This document shows positions 1-13,131 of a stretch of DNA of 13,221 bases, one piece after another; the first letter of the stretch is position 1; each line of letters begins with the position of its first letter. A program made the translations under genes and the position numbers. Source of the DNA: DATKZS01 sp035527835 [NCBI: bacterium] (GTDB lineage: Bacteria > RBG-13-61-14); the NCBI GenBank assembly GCA_035527835.1, contig DATKZS010000110.1, forward strand, positions 1-13,221, written 5' to 3'. The notes below the pieces were generated by a model, which saw nothing but the letters and a program-made list of their open reading frames with translations, was not told the origin of the DNA and made no database searches.

Positions 1-1112
1 TTTACAATCAGCTGGATGGAACCGCCATCCTTTTTAAGAACCTTCAACTATGGATGGGACAGCCTCAAGAAGCAAGACGAGGTTTCAAGGCTATTGAAGG
101 CGAGTTAATAAAAAAAGCCGAAGAAAAGATAGCGAGCATCGCTAGCACTCAACTTCCGACGTTGGGAGAGACACCTCAGGAGCGGGAAGCCAGAGAGAAC
201 TTCAATCGAGGTGTGGAGGCCTATGAAAATTCCGAATTGAATCAAGCTATTGAATGCTGGACAAAAGCCATTGAGATAAATCCAAAAAATGCTAAAGCAT
301 ACAGCAACCGCGGAGTGGCCCGGACAGACTTAGGTGACCATGCGGGAGCGATAGCCGATTTTGATAAGGCCATTGAGATCAATCCCAAAGCTGCCCAAAT
401 ATACTTTAACAGAGGCTCGGCCCGGGGAAAATCAGGGGACTATGCAAAAGCGATATCCGATTTTGATAAAGCCATTAAGATCAATCCGAAGGATGCCAAC
501 GTATACTGGAACCGCGGCTTGGCCCGGGGAAAATCAGGAGACCATACGGGAGCGATAATCGATTATGATAAAGCTATTGAGATCAATCCCAAATATGTCG
601 AAGCATACTATAACAGAGGCGTGACCCGAGGCAAATTAGGAGACCATGCGGGAGCGATAGCCGATTTTGATAAGGCCATTGAAATCAATCCGAAAGACGC
701 CAAAGCATACTGTAACCGCGGAGTTGCCCGGACAGAATCAGGAGACCATGCGGGAGCGATAGCCGATTATGATAAAGCCATTGAGATCGATCCAAAAGAT
801 GGTAACGTATATTATAACCGCGGTGTAAACCGAGAGAAATCAGGAGACCATGCAAGAGCGATAGATGAATATAATAAAGCCATCGAGATCAATCCAATAC
901 ATGATAAAGCATACTATAACCGCTCCTGCATCAGAGCCCACTTGAAAGAGGTTGATCTTTGCGCCGAGGATTTGAAGAAGGCGATTGAGCTGGATGGGAA
1001 GCATTTGGAGATGGCGCGGAGGGACAAGGATTTTGACGGGGTGAGGGGGGAGGCGGCGATTGAGGCGGTGTTGGGCAAGGCGCCTTATGAAGTACAGGGA
1101 TCGTCGAAGTAG
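1..1112 (+). CDS. TPR-repeat protein, 5' end outside window
   Basis: This is the C-terminal part of a tetratricopeptide-repeat protein. TPRs are helical-hairpin scaffolds for protein-protein contact; no enzymatic domain is visible. The reading frame is open from position 3 through the left edge with no stop, so the ATG at 54 need not be the start, and I treat the gene as 5'-truncated by the window. Counting from the ATG at 54, eight consecutive 34-residue units run from about residue 50 to 321. They follow the pattern YNRGxARxxxGDHAGAIADFDKAIEINPK and are nearly identical in units 2-7. The last unit is degenerate and is followed by a tail of about 30 residues (MARRDKDFDGVRGEAAIE), the kind of end common in such proteins. 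The array is AT-rich, while the last 150 bases are strongly GC-rich. The next gene is about 150 bp away behind palindromes, so no operon partner is visible. Function is unknown. Confidence 0.9.
   Translation, partial: YNQLDGTAILFKNLQLWMGQPQEARRGFKAIEGELIKKAEEKIASIASTQLPTLGETPQEREARENFNRGVEAYENSELNQAIECWTKAIEINPKNAKAYSNRGVARTDLGDHAGAIADFDKAIEINPKAAQIYFNRGSARGKSGDYAKAISDFDKAIKINPKDANVYWNRGLARGKSGDHTGAIIDYDKAIEINPKYVEAYYNRGVTRGKLGDHAGAIADFDKAIEINPKDAKAYCNRGVARTESGDHAGAIADYDKAIEIDPKDGNVYYNRGVNREKSGDHARAIDEYNKAIEINPIHDKAYYNRSCIRAHLKEVDLCAEDLKKAIELDGKHLEMARRDKDFDGVRGEAAIEAVLGKAPYEVQGSSK
201..1016 (+). repeat. Eight 102-bp TPR-coding tandem units
   Basis: The units repeat in phase with the codons every 102 bases. 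Units 2 to 7 (about 303-914) are similar at the DNA level, not only in protein. Recurring strings include GACCATGCGGGAGCGATAG and AAAGCCATTGAGATCAATCC. The first and last units have diverged. The internal similarity suggests recent duplication or gene conversion, so copy number may vary between strains and short-read assembly may collapse it. Confidence 0.85.
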
Positions 1113-6495: not shown

Positions 6496-6564
6496 GGTGT
6501 CCTCCAAAGGCCCCAAGGGAGGGGCTAATTAAACGCCAAGTCGCCAAGGTCGGAAAGAGAATTT

Positions 6565-6642
6565 TTTTGACGGGATAAACAGGATTCGTGGGATTTAAAT
6601 CTCTTCTCTTCCATCCTGAAAATCCTGTTGATCCTGTCAAAA
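6565..6642. repeat. Inverted repeat with 22-bp arms
   Basis: The left arm TTTTGACGGGATAAACAGGATT (quoted in pieces TTTTGACGGGAT / AAACAGGATT) at 6565-6586 and the right arm AATCCTGTTG / ATCCTGTCAAAA at 6621-6642 are reverse complements at 20 of 22 positions, around a 34-base loop. It lies in the 238-bp gap upstream of the acyltransferase-like gene. The adjoining AAACGCCAAG/TCGCCAAGG string (6531-6549) is itself a short direct repeat. I recall this GACAGGAT...ATCCTGTC form as a dispersed element in environmental bacteria. A TATAAT on the minus strand (6645-6650) sits beside it without a clear -35 box. Confidence 0.75.
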
Positions 6643-6733
6643 GAATTATAGCTGAAGATCAGCCCGCATCGTCGCTGGGATGGCGATGCATATAGAGTAT
6701 CGCGGAATAATCGGGGTCAGTCAATCCGGTCGC

Positions 6734-7582: not shown

Positions 7583-7713
7583 CAGATCATCCTTTGTTGC
7601 TGCCCTGGCTCTGGAGGTCGGACCTTGAAAGTGGCCTTGCCTGCTGCCAAGATGATCGCGGATTTCAGGAGGAAAAGCAAAAGATAGCGGCAACCAAGCG
7701 CCGCCCCTGGAAG

Positions 7714-7732
7714 CGCCGCCGGCCTGGCGGCG
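7714..7732 (-). terminator. GC hairpin downstream of hsp20
   Basis: CGCCGCC-GGCCT-GGCGGCG is a perfect 7-bp stem 50 bases after the hsp20 stop, in the gap before the methyltransferase. No T-run follows in the minus direction, so it may be a factor-assisted stop, an RNA-stabilising hairpin, or chance in GC-rich DNA. Confidence 0.35.
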
Positions 7733-7781
7733 TAACAACAAGAGAAGATGGCGGCGGGACGCAGGTGTTACGCGGTTCGGA

Positions 7782-8210
7782 TCAGCCCTTGACCTCGATG
7801 CACTTCCGGCTGTTTTCCTCACTCTTGGGAATGGTGACCTCGATCACTCCATCCTGGTACTGGGCCTCGATGGCCTCGCAGTCCACATTGTAGGGGAGCG
7901 AGAACACGCGCTCGAACGGGCCGTAGGTGCGCTCGACGTGGTGGTACTTGCGCGACTGTTCCATCTTGCGGGCCGGCCGCTCGCCGCTGATGACCAGGTG
8001 GCGGTCGCGGTACTCGACCTTGATCTTGTCCGGATTGATGCCCGGCACCTCGGCCTTGATAACGAAGGACCCGCTGGTCTCGTAGATGTCCACCGCCGGC
8101 GACCAGGCCGACCCGGGCGACTCGGTGATCCCGAATTCCGGGCCTTCCCCGAACAGCTCCTGGTGCAGCGAGATCAGGTCCTGCAACGGATCCCATTTAT
8201 TGTAAGGCAT
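7782..8210 (-). CDS. Small heat-shock protein, Hsp20/alpha-crystallin family
   Basis: This is a 142-residue ATP-independent holdase that keeps unfolding proteins soluble for the DnaK system. The alpha-crystallin domain spans about residues 36-130: SPAVDIYETSGSFVIKAEVP at the start, VEYRDRHLVISGER in the middle, and DGVIEVTIPKSE at 120-131, the family's final strand. The C-terminal IEVKG contains the IxI/V-type assembly motif. The ATG at 8210 follows AGGGAG about 7 bases upstream. The longer frame to 8255 runs into the palindrome and is rejected. The length is typical of the class. It lies 140 bp behind dnaK on the same strand and is probably in one transcript with it, with paired hairpins between them. 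Confidence 0.95.
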   Translation of the reverse strand: MPYNKWDPLQDLISLHQELFGEGPEFGITESPGSAWSPAVDIYETSGSFVIKAEVPGINPDKIKVEYRDRHLVISGERPARKMEQSRKYHHVERTYGPFERVFSLPYNVDCEAIEAQYQDGVIEVTIPKSEENSRKCIEVKG

Positions 8211-8221
8211 GGCAAACTCCC

Positions 8222-8350
8222 TTTGGAGTGCGGCGGCACATGACGCCGCTTTCATTAGCCCTTCAGATCACGGCCAGACTAATCATAACTCCCGATGCGA
8301 ATCAAGTCATCAAGCTTAATGAAAGCGCTGTCATGCCAGCGCACTCCAAA
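8222..8350. repeat. Pair of opposed REP-like hairpins between dnaK and hsp20
   Basis: The two ends of the dnaK-hsp20 gap are related in inverted orientation over about 36 bases. Arm 1 (8222-8258) reads TTTGGAGT, then hairpin GCGGCG-8 nt-CGCCGC, then TTTCATTA. Arm 2, read from 8350 back to 8315, has the same flanks around GCGCTG-6 nt-CAGCGC. Both stems are perfect 6-mers despite differing in sequence. Arm 2 begins at the base next to the dnaK stop codon, and arm 1 abuts the hsp20 ribosome-binding site. This is the layout of a paired REP (BIME-like) element, possibly modulating stability or translation of the two halves of the transcript. Confidence 0.8.
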
Positions 8351-10252
8351 TCAGTTCGAGTCCTCATACTCGGCGTCAATGACCTCGCCTTCCTTGGCGC
8401 CTTGCGGGCCTTGCGGTTCGGGTCCGGGCGCGGCCCCGGGCGCGGGCCCGGCGGTCTGCTGCTTATACAGAACCTCGGCGATCTTGTGGGAGGACTGGAG
8501 GATGCGCTCGGCGGCCTGCTTCATGGCCTCCGCGTCCTCCCCCTCGAGCGCCTTCTTGCCGTCGGCGATGGCGGACTCGACCGCGCCGGCGTCGGCCTCG
8601 GGAATCTTCGCTCGGTTCTCGTTCAGGATTTTCTCGGTGTTGTAGATCACGGAGTCGAGGTGGTTCCTGGCCTCGACGGCCTCGCGGCGCTTTTTGTCCT
8701 CGTCGCCATGGGCCTCGGCGTCCGTGACCATGCGCTTGATGTCGTCGTCGTTGAGGCCGGAGCTCGCGGTGATGGTGATGTTCTGGACCTTGCTGGTGGC
8801 CATGTCCTTGGCCGAGACGTTGACGATGCCGTTGGCGTCAATGTCAAAGGCGACCTCGATCTGGGGCAGTCCGCGCGGCGCAGGCGGGATGCCGACGAGG
8901 TGGAAGCGGCCGAGGGTGCGGTTCTGCGCCGCCATTGGCCGCTCGCCCTGCAGCACGTGGATCTCGACGGAGGTCTGGTTGTCGGCGGCGGTGGTGAAGG
9001 TCTCGGACTTGCGGGTGGGGATGGTGGTGTTGCGGGCGATCAGGGTGGTCATCACGCCGCCCAGGGTCTCGACGCCGAGCGACAGCGGGGTCACGTCGAG
9101 GAGCAGGATGTCCTTGACCTCTCCGCCGAGCACTCCGGCCTGCACCGCGGCGCCGGCGGCCACGACCTCGTCCGGGTTCACCGTCTTCTTCGGCTCCTTG
9201 CCGAACAATTCCTTGACCAGGTTCTGCACCCGCGGGATGCGGGTCGAGCCGCCCACCAGCACGACCTCGTCAATCTGCTCCGGCTTGAGCCGCGCGTCGG
9301 CGATGGCCTTCTCGCACGGCCCCTTCGAGCGCAAGATGATGTCGTCCACCAGTTGCTCGAACTTGGAGCGAGCGAGCTTGATGGTGAGGTGCTTGGGCCC
9401 GGAGGCGTCGGCGGTGAGGAAGGGCAGGTTGACCTCGGACTCCATGGTGGTGGAGAGCTCGATCTTGGCCTTTTCCGCCGCGTCCTTCAAGCGCTGCATC
9501 ACCATCTTGTCCTTGGACACGTCAATCCCCGACTCCTTCTTGAACTCGGCTACCAGCCACTCCATGATGCGGTGGTCTATGTCGTCGCCGCCCAGGTGGG
9601 TGTCGCCGTGGGTCGCCTTGACCTCGACCACGTTGTCGCCCACTTCCAGAATGGAGATGTCGAACGTGCCGCCGCCGAAGTCGTAGACCGCGATGGTGGC
9701 GTTCTTCTTCTTGTCCAGGCCATAGGCCAGGGCGGAGGCGGTGGGCTCGTTGATGATGCGCTTGACGTCAAGTCCCGCGATCTTGCCCGCGTCCTTGGTC
9801 GCCTGCCGCTGGCTGTCGTTGAAATAGGCCGGGACCGTGATCACGGCCTCCTTCACTTCCTCGCCAAGGTAATCCTCGGCCGCTTTTTTAAGCTTCTGCA
9901 GGATCATGGCCGAAATCTCGGGCGGAGAGAATTTCTTGCCTCGGACCTCCACCCGCACGTCGCCGTTCGACTCCTGCGTCACCTTGTATGGGACCAGCTT
10001 GATCTCCTGGCCGACCTCCCCGTAGCGCCGGCCCATGAACCGCTTGATCGAATAGACCGTGTTCTCCGGGTTGGTGATGGACTGGCGCTTGGCGATCTGA
10101 CCGACCAGCCGCTCGCCCTCCTTGGTGAACCCTACGACGCTGGGCGTGGTCCGGCCGCCTTCCTCGTTCGCAATGATCTTCGGATCGCCGCCCTCCATGA
10201 CCGCAACCACCGAGTTGGTCGTGCCCAGGTCAATACCGATAATTTTTCCCAT
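8351..10252 (-). CDS. dnaK: Chaperone protein DnaK (Hsp70)
   Basis: This is a 633-residue cytosolic ATP-dependent chaperone. The ATPase domain is complete: phosphate-1 loop GIDLGTTNS at 6-14, [12 protein letters not shown] at 189-200 and [10 protein letters not shown] at 331-340. The interdomain linker [13 protein letters not shown] is at 381-393. The substrate-binding beta domain runs to about 500 and the helical lid to about 600. A Gly/Pro/Ala-rich tail then leads to the usual acidic end EVIDAEYED. The segment around 74-95 is the insertion typical of Gram-negative-type DnaK. The ATG at 10252 follows CAGGAGG 8 bases upstream; the longer frame to 10288 reads through that site. It is upstream of hsp20. 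No grpE or dnaJ lies alongside, so its cochaperones must be encoded elsewhere. Confidence 0.98.
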
Positions 10253-10330
10253 TACCTTAGCCTCCTGAAAAACTTCATTGATCCTCAATAACTAATTGAC
10301 GCACCTTGGCCCCCAATAACTACTGCCGAC

Positions 10331-10358
10331 AAAATAAGCACTAACCAAAAAAAGTCAA
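10331..10358 (-). promoter_or_regulatory. Candidate dnaK promoter TTGACT-16-TATTTT
   Basis: On the minus strand, TTGACT (10358-10353) and TATTTT (10336-10331) are 16 bp apart, about 80 bases ahead of the dnaK start. The -35 box matches at five of six bases and the -10 box at four. Another TTGACC lies further upstream near 10400. It looks like a housekeeping-sigma promoter; I see no evident heat-shock operator. Confidence 0.4.
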
Positions 10359-10544
10359 CATTAAAAAGCAAATTATGACGACATTTTTTAGTGATTGGTC
10401 AAATTTTTTCAGGCCGGCCCAAGCTCAATTATGGAAGATGCTTCAGAAACGCATGACCGAGCCATGATTTTTCGAAAAGATCTGTGAATAATTATATTAA
10501 ATTACAATAAGTTAAACATCACATCGCCTAACGGACCCAGGTCT

Positions 10545-10593
10545 TCAAACCCCAAACCTCAAACCCCAAACCTCAAACCCCAAACCTCAAACC
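10545..10593. repeat. Seven tandem heptamers YCAAACC
   Basis: There are exactly seven 7-base units, alternating TCAAACC and CCAAACC (T,C,T,C,T,C,T), ending 3 bases before the dgt stop codon complement. On the dgt sense strand this is GGTTTGR x7, a G-rich telomere-like run placed in the 3' untranslated region, with enough GG pairs to fold as a two-tier quadruplex. Confidence 0.9.
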
Positions 10594-10596
10594 TCT

Positions 10597-11670
10597 TTAG
10601 TACGCCCATGGCCTCGGCACGAACAGGTCATCGAAGATGTGCAGGGCATAGGAGTCGGACATTCCGGCGATGAAGTCGCGGGCCTCGATCTCGATGTCGT
10701 ACTTGAACTCCTTTTTGTCGGTTAGCCTCCTTAGCTGGTCCGGGTTTTTGACAAGATAGTGGTAGAGCTCCTGGATGACGTGGCGCGACTTGCGGAACTC
10801 GCGCTGCACTTCGTCGTTCTCGTACACGCGCTCGAAGAGCCAGGCTTTCAGCTTTTCCGTGGCCGTGAGCAGCTCGCGGCTCATGGCCAGCGCGTTCTTG
10901 CCCTGCTTCGCGGTTTCCACGACAATGTCGGTGACCATGTTGTTGATGCGCCGGGAGTGGGACTTGCCGAGCGTCTCAATCAGTTCGCGGGGCACTTCGG
11001 AGGCCTTGATCAGTCCGGCGGCGATCGCGTCCTGCAGATCGTGGTTGGTATAGGCCACGATGTCGGCGATGCGAACTACCTTGCCTTCCAGGGTGGCGGG
11101 CTGGTCCGCGGAGCGCGAGGGGATGACCGGGTTGTCGCGGCCCTTCGAGTGCTTGAGGATCCCGTCGCGGACCTCCCAGGTGAGGTTGAGTCCCGCTCCC
11201 TCGTAGGCCAGCTCGTCCACCACCCGGAGCGACTGCTCCCAGTGGTGGAAGCCGCCGGGCACGACCTCGTCGAGCGCGAACTCGCCGGCGTGGCCGAAGG
11301 GGGTATGGCCGAGGTCGTGGCCCAGCGCGATGGCCTCGGTCAGGTCCTCGTTGAGCTGCAGGGCGCGGGAGATGGTGCGGGCGATCTGGCTGACCTCGAT
11401 GGTGTGGGTCAGCCGGGTGCGGTAGTGGTCGCCCTTCGGCGCCAGGAAAACCTGGGTCTTGTGCTTGAGGCGCCGGAAGGCCTTGCAATGAATGATGCGG
11501 TCGCGGTCACGCTGGAACGCGGGCCGGACGTGGCAGGGCTTTTCCGGCCTGAGCCGCCCCTTGGATTCGTCGCTCTTCGCGGCCAGCGGTGAAAGCACCT
11601 GGTGCTCCAGCCGCTCCTGCCGCTCCCGGATCGTCAGCGGCGCGCCGGCGTCTTTTTCCTTGTCAGCCAT
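10597..11670 (-). CDS. dgt: dGTPase-family HD hydrolase (dNTP triphosphohydrolase)
   Basis: This encodes 357 residues from the ATG at 11670. The enzyme family hydrolyses dGTP, and often other dNTPs, to the nucleoside plus triphosphate, tuning DNA precursor pools. The HD metal site is complete: RLTHT (H89), GHDLGHTPFGH (H118, D119) and RIADIVAY (D203). The family block RRLKHKTQVFLAPKGDHYRT is at 66-85. The length fits the shorter class of bacterial dGTPase-like proteins rather than the 505-residue E. coli enzyme. Other starts upstream (ATG 11682, TTG 11694) overlap the predicted promoter. No Shine-Dalgarno is seen before 11670, and the -10 box ends 10 bases ahead of it, suggesting a leaderless message. 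It stands alone, with heptamer repeats directly after its stop. Confidence 0.93.
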   Translation of the reverse strand: MADKEKDAGAPLTIRERQERLEHQVLSPLAAKSDESKGRLRPEKPCHVRPAFQRDRDRIIHCKAFRRLKHKTQVFLAPKGDHYRTRLTHTIEVSQIARTISRALQLNEDLTEAIALGHDLGHTPFGHAGEFALDEVVPGGFHHWEQSLRVVDELAYEGAGLNLTWEVRDGILKHSKGRDNPVIPSRSADQPATLEGKVVRIADIVAYTNHDLQDAIAAGLIKASEVPRELIETLGKSHSRRINNMVTDIVVETAKQGKNALAMSRELLTATEKLKAWLFERVYENDEVQREFRKSRHVIQELYHYLVKNPDQLRRLTDKKEFKYDIEIEARDFIAGMSDSYALHIFDDLFVPRPWAY

Positions 11671-11928: not shown

Positions 11929-13131
11929 ATGGACCCAAGGACCCTGAGGCTTGTTATACGCGCGGCCCTGATCATATTGCTCTGCTCCATCGTCCCCGGC
12001 TGCTTCCGGGACTGCGCGCAGGAGGACACCGCCGTGTACCTGTGCGCCGACTTTGACGGCGACGGCTACGGCGCCATGTACCCCGGCGAGCAGCTCGGCA
12101 TAAACTACCCCCGCCCCAAAGTCGTCTGCGGCCAGGCCAAGGACTGCGACGACCACGACCCCGATAACTGGTCCGCGTGCACAACCTGCCAAGACCAGGA
12201 CGGAGACGGATGGTACGGCGCCTGCAACGTGTACGCGGGCATCAACGGCCCCGACTGCGACGACTCCGACCCCGACAACTGGATCTCCTGCGCCACCTGC
12301 GCCGACAACGACGGCGACGGATGGTGGGGAGTGTGCGACAATTATGACGGCCGTAACGGCCCCGACTGCGACGACGCCGACCCCGACAACTGGCTCTCCT
12401 GCGCCGCCTGCGTTGACTCCGACCTCGACACCTGGTTCATCGGCTGCGACGCCTACACAACCCGCAACGGTGTGGACTGCGACGACGGCGACAGCCTGAC
12501 CTATCCGGGGGCGGAGGAGATTTGTGATGGGTTGGATAATGATTGCGATGGTATAAGTGATGGAGGAGTAGAAACTTTCGCCAAGATCGGTCAAGAGCTC
12601 AGAGTGACCCAAGCCGAAAATAATAGCTGGGCTCCCTCTCTTTCCTGGACTGGCTCCGAGTTCGGGGTGATCTGGGAGGATAATAGAGACGGGAACAATG
12701 AAATCTACTTTGCCCGGATCAGCGCGGCTGGGGCTAAGATCGGCACAGACCTCCGGGTGACCAGCGATGCGAGTGATAGCTTGAATCCATCTCTTACTTG
12801 GACAGGATCAGAATTCGGGGTGATCTGGGAGGATTTTCGGGATGGAAACATTGAAATCTACTTTGCCCGGATCAGCGCGGCGGGAGCCAAGATCGGCTCA
12901 GACCTCCTGGTGACCAATAACGCGGGTTGGAGTTATTTTCCATCTCTTTCCTGGACCGGTTCTGAGTTCGGGGTAAGCTGGGCTGATGACCGAGACAATG
13001 CTAGTGAAATTTACTTTGCCCGGATCAGCGCGGACGGGGCCAAGATCGGGACCGACATTCGGCTCACCAGCACTATATACCCTAGGAGCCTGTCGGAGAA
13101 AAAATTTCTCCGCCTCGATAACGATTCATGA
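11929..13131 (+). pseudogene. Metal-binding-motif lipoprotein with propeller-like repeats, truncated by IS
   Basis: The frame gives 400 residues, but the last 15 or so are read from an insertion sequence; the native part ends near residue 385. The ATG at 11929 follows AGGAGG. Residues 1-25 are a lipoprotein signal ending in a VPGC lipobox (Cys25). Residues 40-211 are Cys-paired calcium-type loops: DFDGDGYG, then DCDDxDPDNW three times with DxDGDGW between them, then PGAEEICDGLDNDCDG, the signature of 'putative metal-binding motif' (MopE-like) surface proteins. From 221 there are three full 51-residue repeats (PSLSWTGSEFGVIWEDNRDG, then NEIYFARISAAGAKIG) and the start of a fourth. These look like beta-propeller blades, of which more would be expected. 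G+C and third-base C drop sharply near 12510. It is probably exported to the cell surface, with an unknown ligand, and now broken. Confidence 0.8.

What the first reader, a model, noticed from the sequence alone, without database searches (positions are those of the whole stretch)
8222..8350. Opposed hairpins between dnaK and hsp20 show compensatory base changes
The two arms share identical flanks (TTTGGAGT and TTTCATTA), but the stems differ: GCGGCG/CGCCGC against GCGCTG/CAGCGC. Both changed pairs (G-C to C-G, C-G to T-A) keep perfect pairing. Two compensatory double changes within one element argue that the folded form, not the sequence, is maintained, in DNA or in the dnaK-hsp20 mRNA. The arms touch the dnaK stop and the hsp20 ribosome-binding site.
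Basis: seen in the sequence. Interest (0 to 1): 0.7.

Follow-up and report, generated by a model that had tools for sequence, protein, structure and literature searches.

The report
Mobile REP hairpin pair beside dnaK
The two opposed hairpins between dnaK and hsp20 are a pair of REP elements, short repeated DNA hairpins of a known kind that small transposases are thought to move, here in an apparently undescribed variant.

Summary
Window 8222-8350 carries two opposed hairpins with identical flanks and perfect but different stems, filling all but 11 bp of the dnaK-hsp20 gap. It is not peculiar to dnaK: it is a REP doublet (REPIN type, feet outward) of a dispersed family, with 7 to 147 copies in each of eight genomes and 349 matches in 25 of 199 genomes of one phylum. 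A covariance model built without the window finds both arms at 48.8 and 40.5 bits. With the stem left free, 33 of 35 copies make six pairs, using six stems; inner pairs covary. One clade of REP-associated tyrosine transposases carries such hairpins at its flanks: 7 of 10 clade loci match the model, against 0 of 66 loci of other Y1 transposases. So the folded form is maintained, most likely as the transposase's single-stranded DNA substrate. The two compensatory changes were probably not made here: the same two stem types occur paired in other genomes. What seems new is the foot, GGAG(T) instead of GT[AG]G, and its spread over several phyla. An mRNA role at dnaK-hsp20 is untested.

The parts
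8222..8257 (+). left REP unit: foot TTTGGAGT (8222-8229), stem GCGGCG/CGCCGC (8230-8235 with 8244-8249), loop GCACATGA, tail TTTCATTA
   Evidence: (40.5 bits)
8258..8316 (.). 59-bp spacer between the two REP units
   Evidence: 15 feet-out doublets of other genomes have gaps of 14-122 bp
8317..8350 (-). right REP unit, read on the minus strand: foot TTTGGAGT (8350-8343), stem GCGCTG/CAGCGC (8342-8337 with 8330-8325), loop GCATGA, tail TTTCATTA
   Evidence: (48.8 bits)
8351..10288 (-). dnaK (HSP70); its stop codon TGA is 8353-8351, directly against the right REP unit
7782..8210 (-). hsp20 (start MPYNKW); GGGAG at 8217-8221 is a likely ribosome-binding site next to the left REP unit

Best explanation
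The element is a REP doublet (REPIN / BIME type): two short palindromic units in opposite orientation, each with an unpaired conserved foot TTTGGAGT outside and a GC hairpin inside. It is a non-autonomous mobile repeat. A REP-associated tyrosine transposase (RAYT, TnpA-REP; HUH, Y1) of one clade recognises the foot and the fold in single-stranded DNA, presumably during replication, and moves or copies the doublet to gaps beside genes. Because the fold and only some of its bases are read, stem subfamilies with different but complementary bases arise and persist; this doublet carries one unit of each of two subfamilies. Shown: repeat family, conservation of the fold by covariation, feet-out doublets, association with one RAYT clade, all in other genomes. 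Inferred: recognition, cleavage and mobility; that the window's own genome has such copies and such a RAYT; that there is no dnaK-specific role.
For: Copies with the stem left free: 35 in 8 genomes, 33 with all six pairs, six different stems; 501 matches of GGAGTGCGN{8,20}CGCTTT in those 8 genomes against 3 of the reversed control. 349 matches in 25 of 199 genomes of the phylum of G002, 1 reversed control. Covariation on 64 distinct copies: 63 cells changed on both sides, shuffled mean 20.3, 0 of 500 shuffles; score 0.278 against 0.100, slid structures at most 0.159. Window arms found by a model made without them. Neighbours within 150 bp: 15 feet-out, 0 feet-in, 3 same-strand, among the 150 of 349 rows that were listed. 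9 of 65 elements lie inside an ORF of 200 aa or more, background coverage 0.71. Five RAYT genes with GGAGT hairpins at their flanks in four genomes, 4 of 5 above the NCBIfam cut-off for REP-associated tyrosine transposase; best PDB match of their profile is TnpA-REP 4er8. Independent test: a profile of these five finds five more strong members in 199 genomes, of which 4 have model matches beside them and the fifth a GGAGT hairpin pair with another stem. In all 7 of 10 clade loci against 0 of 66 other Y1 loci. Nine of the ten form one supported group in a tree of 46 Y1 proteins (96/87).
Against: No whole genome is held for the window, so copies and a RAYT in its own genome are unseen; the window has no RAYT. 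The foot is GGAG(T), not the canonical GT[AG]G. The first five RAYTs of the clade were picked out because of their flanking hairpins, and two of them (L095, L105) have atypical hairpins that the model does not find. Of the 25 genomes with the element, only 4 (G033, G051, G071, G112) gave a strong RAYT of this clade, G196 a fragment; 21 had no strong member. In G071 the commonest listed stem (11 of 20) has a G-A mismatch at pair 5. Two pairs in G007 are feet-in (C10, C76). The predicted minimum-energy fold of the whole element pairs the two arms with each other rather than forming two hairpins. No transposition event was observed.
Confidence: 0.92

Rival explanations
1. The hairpins are an RNA element of the dnaK-hsp20 transcript (attenuator, processing site or 3' stabiliser that sets the dnaK:hsp20 ratio), kept for that function.
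For: They lie exactly between stop and ribosome-binding site; strong predicted RNA fold; both arms were listed as terminator-like, the right arm on the sense strand; a distant locus, L123, has a T-run terminator in the same gap; the Parachlamydiales genome G005 has a doublet of the family about 75 bp past the dnaK stop.
Against: In 2 of 17 dnaK loci hsp20 follows dnaK, with gaps of 47 and 49 bp and no such element. The T-tract TTTCATTA is weak. The family is dispersed beside many genes and goes with a transposase clade. Elements of the family are often close to stops anyway: 19 of 43 distances are 20 bp or less.
Confidence: 0.1
2. The doublet is kept as one long hairpin or cruciform (arm pairs with arm), with the two short stems incidental.
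For: Minimum-energy folds of RNA and DNA pair arm with arm; REPINs were described as long hairpins (PMC3116915, passages).
Against: Where the two arms of a doublet differ, local pairing is kept in 30 of 34 cells and arm-to-arm pairing in 2 of 34, over 12 doublets including the window; arm-to-arm pairing cannot exceed half there by construction, but local pairing need not have been kept. Single units and same-strand units also occur.
Confidence: 0.06
3. Two unrelated chance hairpins or a recent local inverted duplication.
For: Short elements; only two copies in the window.
Against: The model scores, the copies in other genomes and the same arm combination in other genomes.
Confidence: 0.01

Closest known systems
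GTAG-tagged REP elements, HH dimers (PMC3733652; abstract, passages and sections 5 and 16 read)
   Same: Short palindrome, most stems 6-9 bp, with a conserved unpaired tetranucleotide at one end; dimers with the tag outside, most 20-100 bp apart; subfamilies with alternative complementary stem bases; predominantly downstream of coding regions; RAYT genes flanked by the repeat; reported in the PVC superphylum too.
   Different: Foot here is GGAG followed by T, where the sections read list GTAG and variants GYAG, GYRG, GTRG, GTMG, GTGG. The consensus figure could not be seen.
REPINs and their RAYTs (PMC3116915; passages)
   Same: Inverted REP doublets over-represented and outside genes, with compensatory changes and linked RAYTs.
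   Different: Described there mainly in Pseudomonas fluorescens, with other sequence; excision was not tested here.
TnpA-REP of E. coli (PMC8266576, passages) and the solved TnpA-REP 4er8
   Same: HUH-Y1 protein, profile match 1.5e-08; reads foot and an irregular hairpin in single-stranded DNA.
   Different: E. coli TnpA-REP tolerates no change in GTAG in that work (its group 3 relatives are less strict); the clade here goes with GGAG.
TnpA-Y1 subclasses 2.2-2.8 and class 3 (PMC6006769; passages and sections 12, 25, 26)
   Same: The five RAYTs of alignment A1 have NHYH and Y-[VT]-x-x-N-[PA], like subclass 2.8 (NHYH, YIHYNP), which the paper says has relatives in unrelated phyla.
   Different: Subclass 2.8 REPs have GT[AG]G feet there; subclass 2.6 and class 3 have atypical feet but other protein motifs. 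Subclass membership was not tested here.

Membership tests
REP element (RAYT-associated) | 20-40 bp palindrome able to form a stem-loop | tested here: met
   Arms of 36 and 34 nt with perfect 6-bp stems; -8.9 and -7.1 kcal/mol as DNA.
REP element (RAYT-associated) | many copies, mostly outside genes | tested here: met
   In other genomes: 501 matches in 8 genomes, 349 in 25 of 199; 9 of 65 inside ORFs of 200 aa or more. In the window's own genome not testable.
REP element (RAYT-associated) | conserved GT[AG]G tetranucleotide at the foot | tested here: not met
   Searched by stem and tail only, 315 matches in six genomes; in the 30 loci fetched, 35 copies have G 34, G 34, A 34, G 28, T 34 of 35 at -5 to -1, i.e. 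GGAGT. A conserved foot yes, the canonical letters no; hence filed as a variant, not as a GTAG REP.
REP element (RAYT-associated) | flanks a RAYT gene (REPtron) | tested here: met
   In other genomes: model matches at 7 of 10 clade loci and 0 of 66 other Y1 loci; GGAGT hairpins of other shape at the remaining three, L095, L105, L153. Not present in the window.
REPIN / HH dimer | two units inverted, foot outside, short spacer | tested here: met
   Window: feet out, 59 bp apart; 15 of 18 close neighbours in the listed rows have this orientation; two feet-in pairs in G007.
REPIN / HH dimer | moved by the RAYT | not testable with these tools
   No experiment possible; no empty and filled site of the same place compared.
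RAYT (TnpA-REP) for the flanked genes | HUH motif, catalytic Tyr, REP-RAYT profile | tested here: met
   NHYH and Y-x-x-x-N in all 5 of alignment A1; NF047646 above cut-off in 4 of 5, the fifth 70.1 against 80 bits.
Intrinsic terminator | GC hairpin followed by a run of T | tested here: inconclusive
   Both arms listed by a consensus scan of 7700-10700, 5 found against 2.8 expected in shuffles; the tract is only TTTCATTA.
Any Rfam family | match above the gathering score | tested here: not met
   0 matches in the window.

The most novel reading that the evidence does not exclude
A separate lineage of RAYT-REP systems that reads a GGAG(T) foot plus a hairpin with a frequent G-A mismatch above pair 6, instead of GT[AG]G, spread over Acidobacteriota, Verrucomicrobiota, Planctomycetota, Chlamydiota and Hydrogenedentota (by the labels of the bins) through horizontal transfer, in which stem bases diversify together with the transposase and two-stem (asymmetric) doublets move as a unit.
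Probability: 0.5. Interest if true: 0.5.

Novelty: new variant of a known kind. Interest (0 to 1): 0.35.

Why it matters
It explains an odd hairpin pair at a heat-shock locus as a mobile repeat, and indicates that RAYT-REP systems in poorly studied phyla use a different foot. Natural sets of stem variants, several inside one genome, beside a RAYT clade give a ready series for testing how such transposases tell foot, stem and loop apart.

Tried and rejected
A dnaK-hsp20 RNA regulator: not excluded, but the family is dispersed and goes with a transposase clade. Long arm-to-arm hairpin as the kept form: disfavoured by local pairing at differing positions. Rfam and tRNA scans of the window: nothing. 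Viral-contig scan with one pattern: 0. Plasmids: one match of 22 bases, E 0.4. E. coli genomes: no match at E 0.1. Naming the organism: DnaK identity is 69-72% in the ten best of 199 genomes of the phylum of G002, best full-length 66% in the phylum of G007 (one partial hit 70% over 478 aa), 59-64% in five Hydrogenedentota, Chlamydiota and Planctomycetota bins; so probably Acidobacteriota, not established, and other phyla were not tried. The 20 loci of the best Y1_Tnp hits were looked at first and have no such elements; the flanked RAYTs were among 26 further Y1 loci fetched (two of which repeat places). In one search several other loci showed a lone GGAGT or GTAGT hairpin of other sequence, taken as chance; the model finds none of them. 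Literature: 'GGAG' with 'REP sequences' and 'tyrosine transposase', 0 papers; 'TTTGGAGTGCG', 4 papers, unrelated by title; 'GGAGTGCG', 375 papers of which 20 titles were seen, none on REPs; three topic searches, listings and abstract openings only; passages of PMC2817692 with no GGAG foot. Most subscription journals are not in that library.

Dropped before counts: of 349 matches only the 150 listed were analysed; 19 of these with a core other than 18 nt were left out of the pair statistics. Of 315 matches only those in the 30 loci returned were read. The tree kept 46 of 70 loci with a hit (25 bits or more, at least 110 aa, distinct). Alignment A2 read L150 on the wrong strand and was not used. 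A first hsp20 translation was out of frame and was redone. Within-genome shuffle tests gave 0 to 41 of 2000 shuffles as high in six of nine genomes (G059 0, G033 0, G205 5, G083 12, G017 16, G051 41) and no excess in G071 (287), G140 (2000) and G076 (540).

Full report
Observation. The gap between dnaK and hsp20 (both on the minus strand) consists of two opposed hairpin units at 8222-8257 (+) and 8350-8317 (-), 59 bp apart, plus 11 bp with the likely hsp20 ribosome-binding site. Folding beats all 200 shuffles as RNA and as DNA.

Copies elsewhere. A scan of the genome collection for TTTGGAGTGCG-N{8,20}-CGCTTTCATTA gave 34 stretches, in records labelled Parachlamydiaceae, Parachlamydiales, Thermoguttaceae, Hydrogenedentota, Verrucomicrobia and Acidobacteria. 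All 34 titles are of metagenome-assembled genomes, so labels and bins may err. In eight genomes behind them, a pattern that leaves the stem free (TTTGGAGTN{12,26}TTTCATTA) has 35 matches; 33 make six Watson-Crick pairs directly after the foot, using six different stems, one makes five and one does not belong. A looser tail gives 501 matches, 7 to 147 per genome, against 3 for the reversed pattern. In the phylum of the Acidobacteria bin 25 of 199 genomes have 349 matches with one reversed control; in the phylum of the Verrucomicrobia bin 16 of 115 genomes; in the phylum of a Thermoguttaceae bin 2 of 119, one of them with a single match whose inner stem does not pair. Searches used patterns that fix the outer three pairs.

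Covariation. Of the 150 listed rows, 131 have an 18-nt core, 64 distinct. Counted on these, pair 4 is GC 33, CG 24, AT 2, unpaired 5; pair 5 is TA 22, CG 19, AT 7, GC 2, wobble 3, unpaired 11; 63 cells change on both sides, against a shuffled mean of 20.3 (0 of 500), and the covariation score is 0.278 against 0.100, and at most 0.159 for slid structures. Shuffles do not remove relatedness. Within single genomes there is an excess in six of nine tested and none in G071, G140 and G076; in G071 the commonest listed stem has a G-A mismatch at pair 5. Pair 7 is unpaired in 27 of 64, in 21 of them G-A, as it is in both window arms. A covariance model made from these 64 copies, none from the window, finds the window arms at 48.8 and 40.5 bits; the next match scores 9.7.

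What the two compensatory changes mean. The two stem types of the window, GCGGCG and GCGCTG, both recur in other genomes, and doublets that pair one of each are seen in G033:C23:935460/935503 and G209:C9:53068/53119, drawn from two different phyla. The likeliest history is therefore a doublet made of two existing subfamilies, not two substitutions in this copy. Subfamilies with alternative complementary stem bases were already described for GTAG REPs (PMC3733652, section 5). Where the arms of a doublet differ, local pairing is kept in 30 of 34 cells and arm-to-arm pairing in 2 of 34 (12 doublets; the second number is at most half by construction).

Organisation. Close neighbours are feet-out in 15 of 18 cases and never feet-in in the listed rows; but G007 has two feet-in pairs. 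Of 72 sites in fetched loci, with ORFs of 150 aa or more called by length only, 27 lie between tandem, 8 between convergent and 4 between divergent ORFs, 11 inside one, and 22 at locus edges or far from an ORF; 19 of 43 distances to a stop codon are 20 bp or less. The window's position, against a stop codon, is thus usual.

Transposase. Among 26 further Y1 loci fetched from the first eight genomes, five have a gene of about 180 aa with GGAGT hairpins at its flanks; two of the five (L095, L105) have hairpins of atypical shape or orientation. Four of the five pass the NCBIfam cut-off for REP-associated tyrosine transposase; the profile's best match in PDB is TnpA-REP, 4er8. These five were chosen by their flanks, so the fair test is what their profile finds next: in 199 genomes it finds five strong members (E below 1e-49), in G071, G051, G112, G033 and G082. 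Four lie in genomes with the element (P = 0.0009) and have model matches beside them; the fifth, in G082, is flanked by an inverted hairpin pair with the same GGAGT foot but another stem. In all, model matches lie at 7 of 10 clade loci and at 0 of 66 loci of other Y1 transposases, two of these 66 being repeats of the same place. In a tree of 46 Y1 proteins the nine clade members other than that of G082 form one supported group, which mixes bins labelled Chlamydiota and Planctomycetota families with genomes of the phylum of G002. Most element-bearing genomes (21 of 25) showed no strong RAYT of the clade, which could be loss, incomplete bins or movement by another enzyme.

Foot. Searched by stem and tail without any head, six genomes have 315 matches. 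In the 30 loci returned, 35 copies agree with GGAGT at -5 to -1 in 34, 34, 34, 28 and 34 of 35, after a TTT run. REP feet in what I read are GT[AG]G, with variants GYAG, GYRG, GTRG, GTMG, GTGG (PMC3733652, section 5) and CnGA for class 3 (PMC6006769, passages). E. coli TnpA-REP tolerates no change in GTAG, group 3 enzymes are less strict (PMC8266576, passages). So the foot looks new to the literature searched, within a known kind of system.

Mechanism. Most likely a RAYT of this clade reads the foot and the fold of a single strand and mobilises the doublet; the hairpin is kept because the enzyme needs it, while its bases may drift in complementary pairs. A role in the dnaK-hsp20 message is possible as a side effect; in 2 of 17 dnaK loci hsp20 follows dnaK without the element. 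Steps shown and inferred are marked in Best explanation.

Limits. No genome is held for the window and its source is unknown; DnaK identity points to the phylum of the Acidobacteria bin among those tried.

Noticed in passing
window 10545-10593: Perfect 14-bp tandem repeat TCAAACCCCAAACC, 3.5 copies, in the gap upstream of dnaK.
   Followed up: no
window 6560-6586 and 6621-6647: 27-nt inverted repeat, 89% complementary, 34 nt apart, with CAGGATT / AATCCTG words.
   Followed up: no
L088 1215-1312 (G005:C12), also L118: In the Parachlamydiales bin SW_13 a doublet of the same family (foot TTTGGGAGT) lies about 75 bp past the dnaK stop. Chance or a favoured spot; not tested.
   Followed up: partly
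L123 3430-3478: In one dnaK-hsp20 locus the gap holds a GC hairpin followed by eight T, a likely terminator, where the window has the REP doublet.
   Followed up: partly
L150 1112-2453: The RAYT of G051 sits between arrays of elements of two stem types (GCGCAG and GCGGCG) on opposite strands.
   Followed up: no
L153 1394-2088: The RAYT of G082 is flanked by an inverted pair with foot GGAGT but stem GCAAAAC/GTTTTGC: the stem may diversify with the transposase.
   Followed up: no
G033:C23:1573218-1573747: The clade RAYT is split over two reading frames although the genome has at least 41 copies of the element.
   Followed up: no
G007:C10:21010-21106 and G007:C76:9434-9530: Doublets in the opposite, feet-in orientation in the Verrucomicrobia bin AV47.
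   Followed up: no
window 264-923 and 12142-13072: Long in-frame tandem repeats in a TPR gene (102-bp units) and in a gene with a MopE metal-binding motif (111- and 153-bp units).
   Followed up: no
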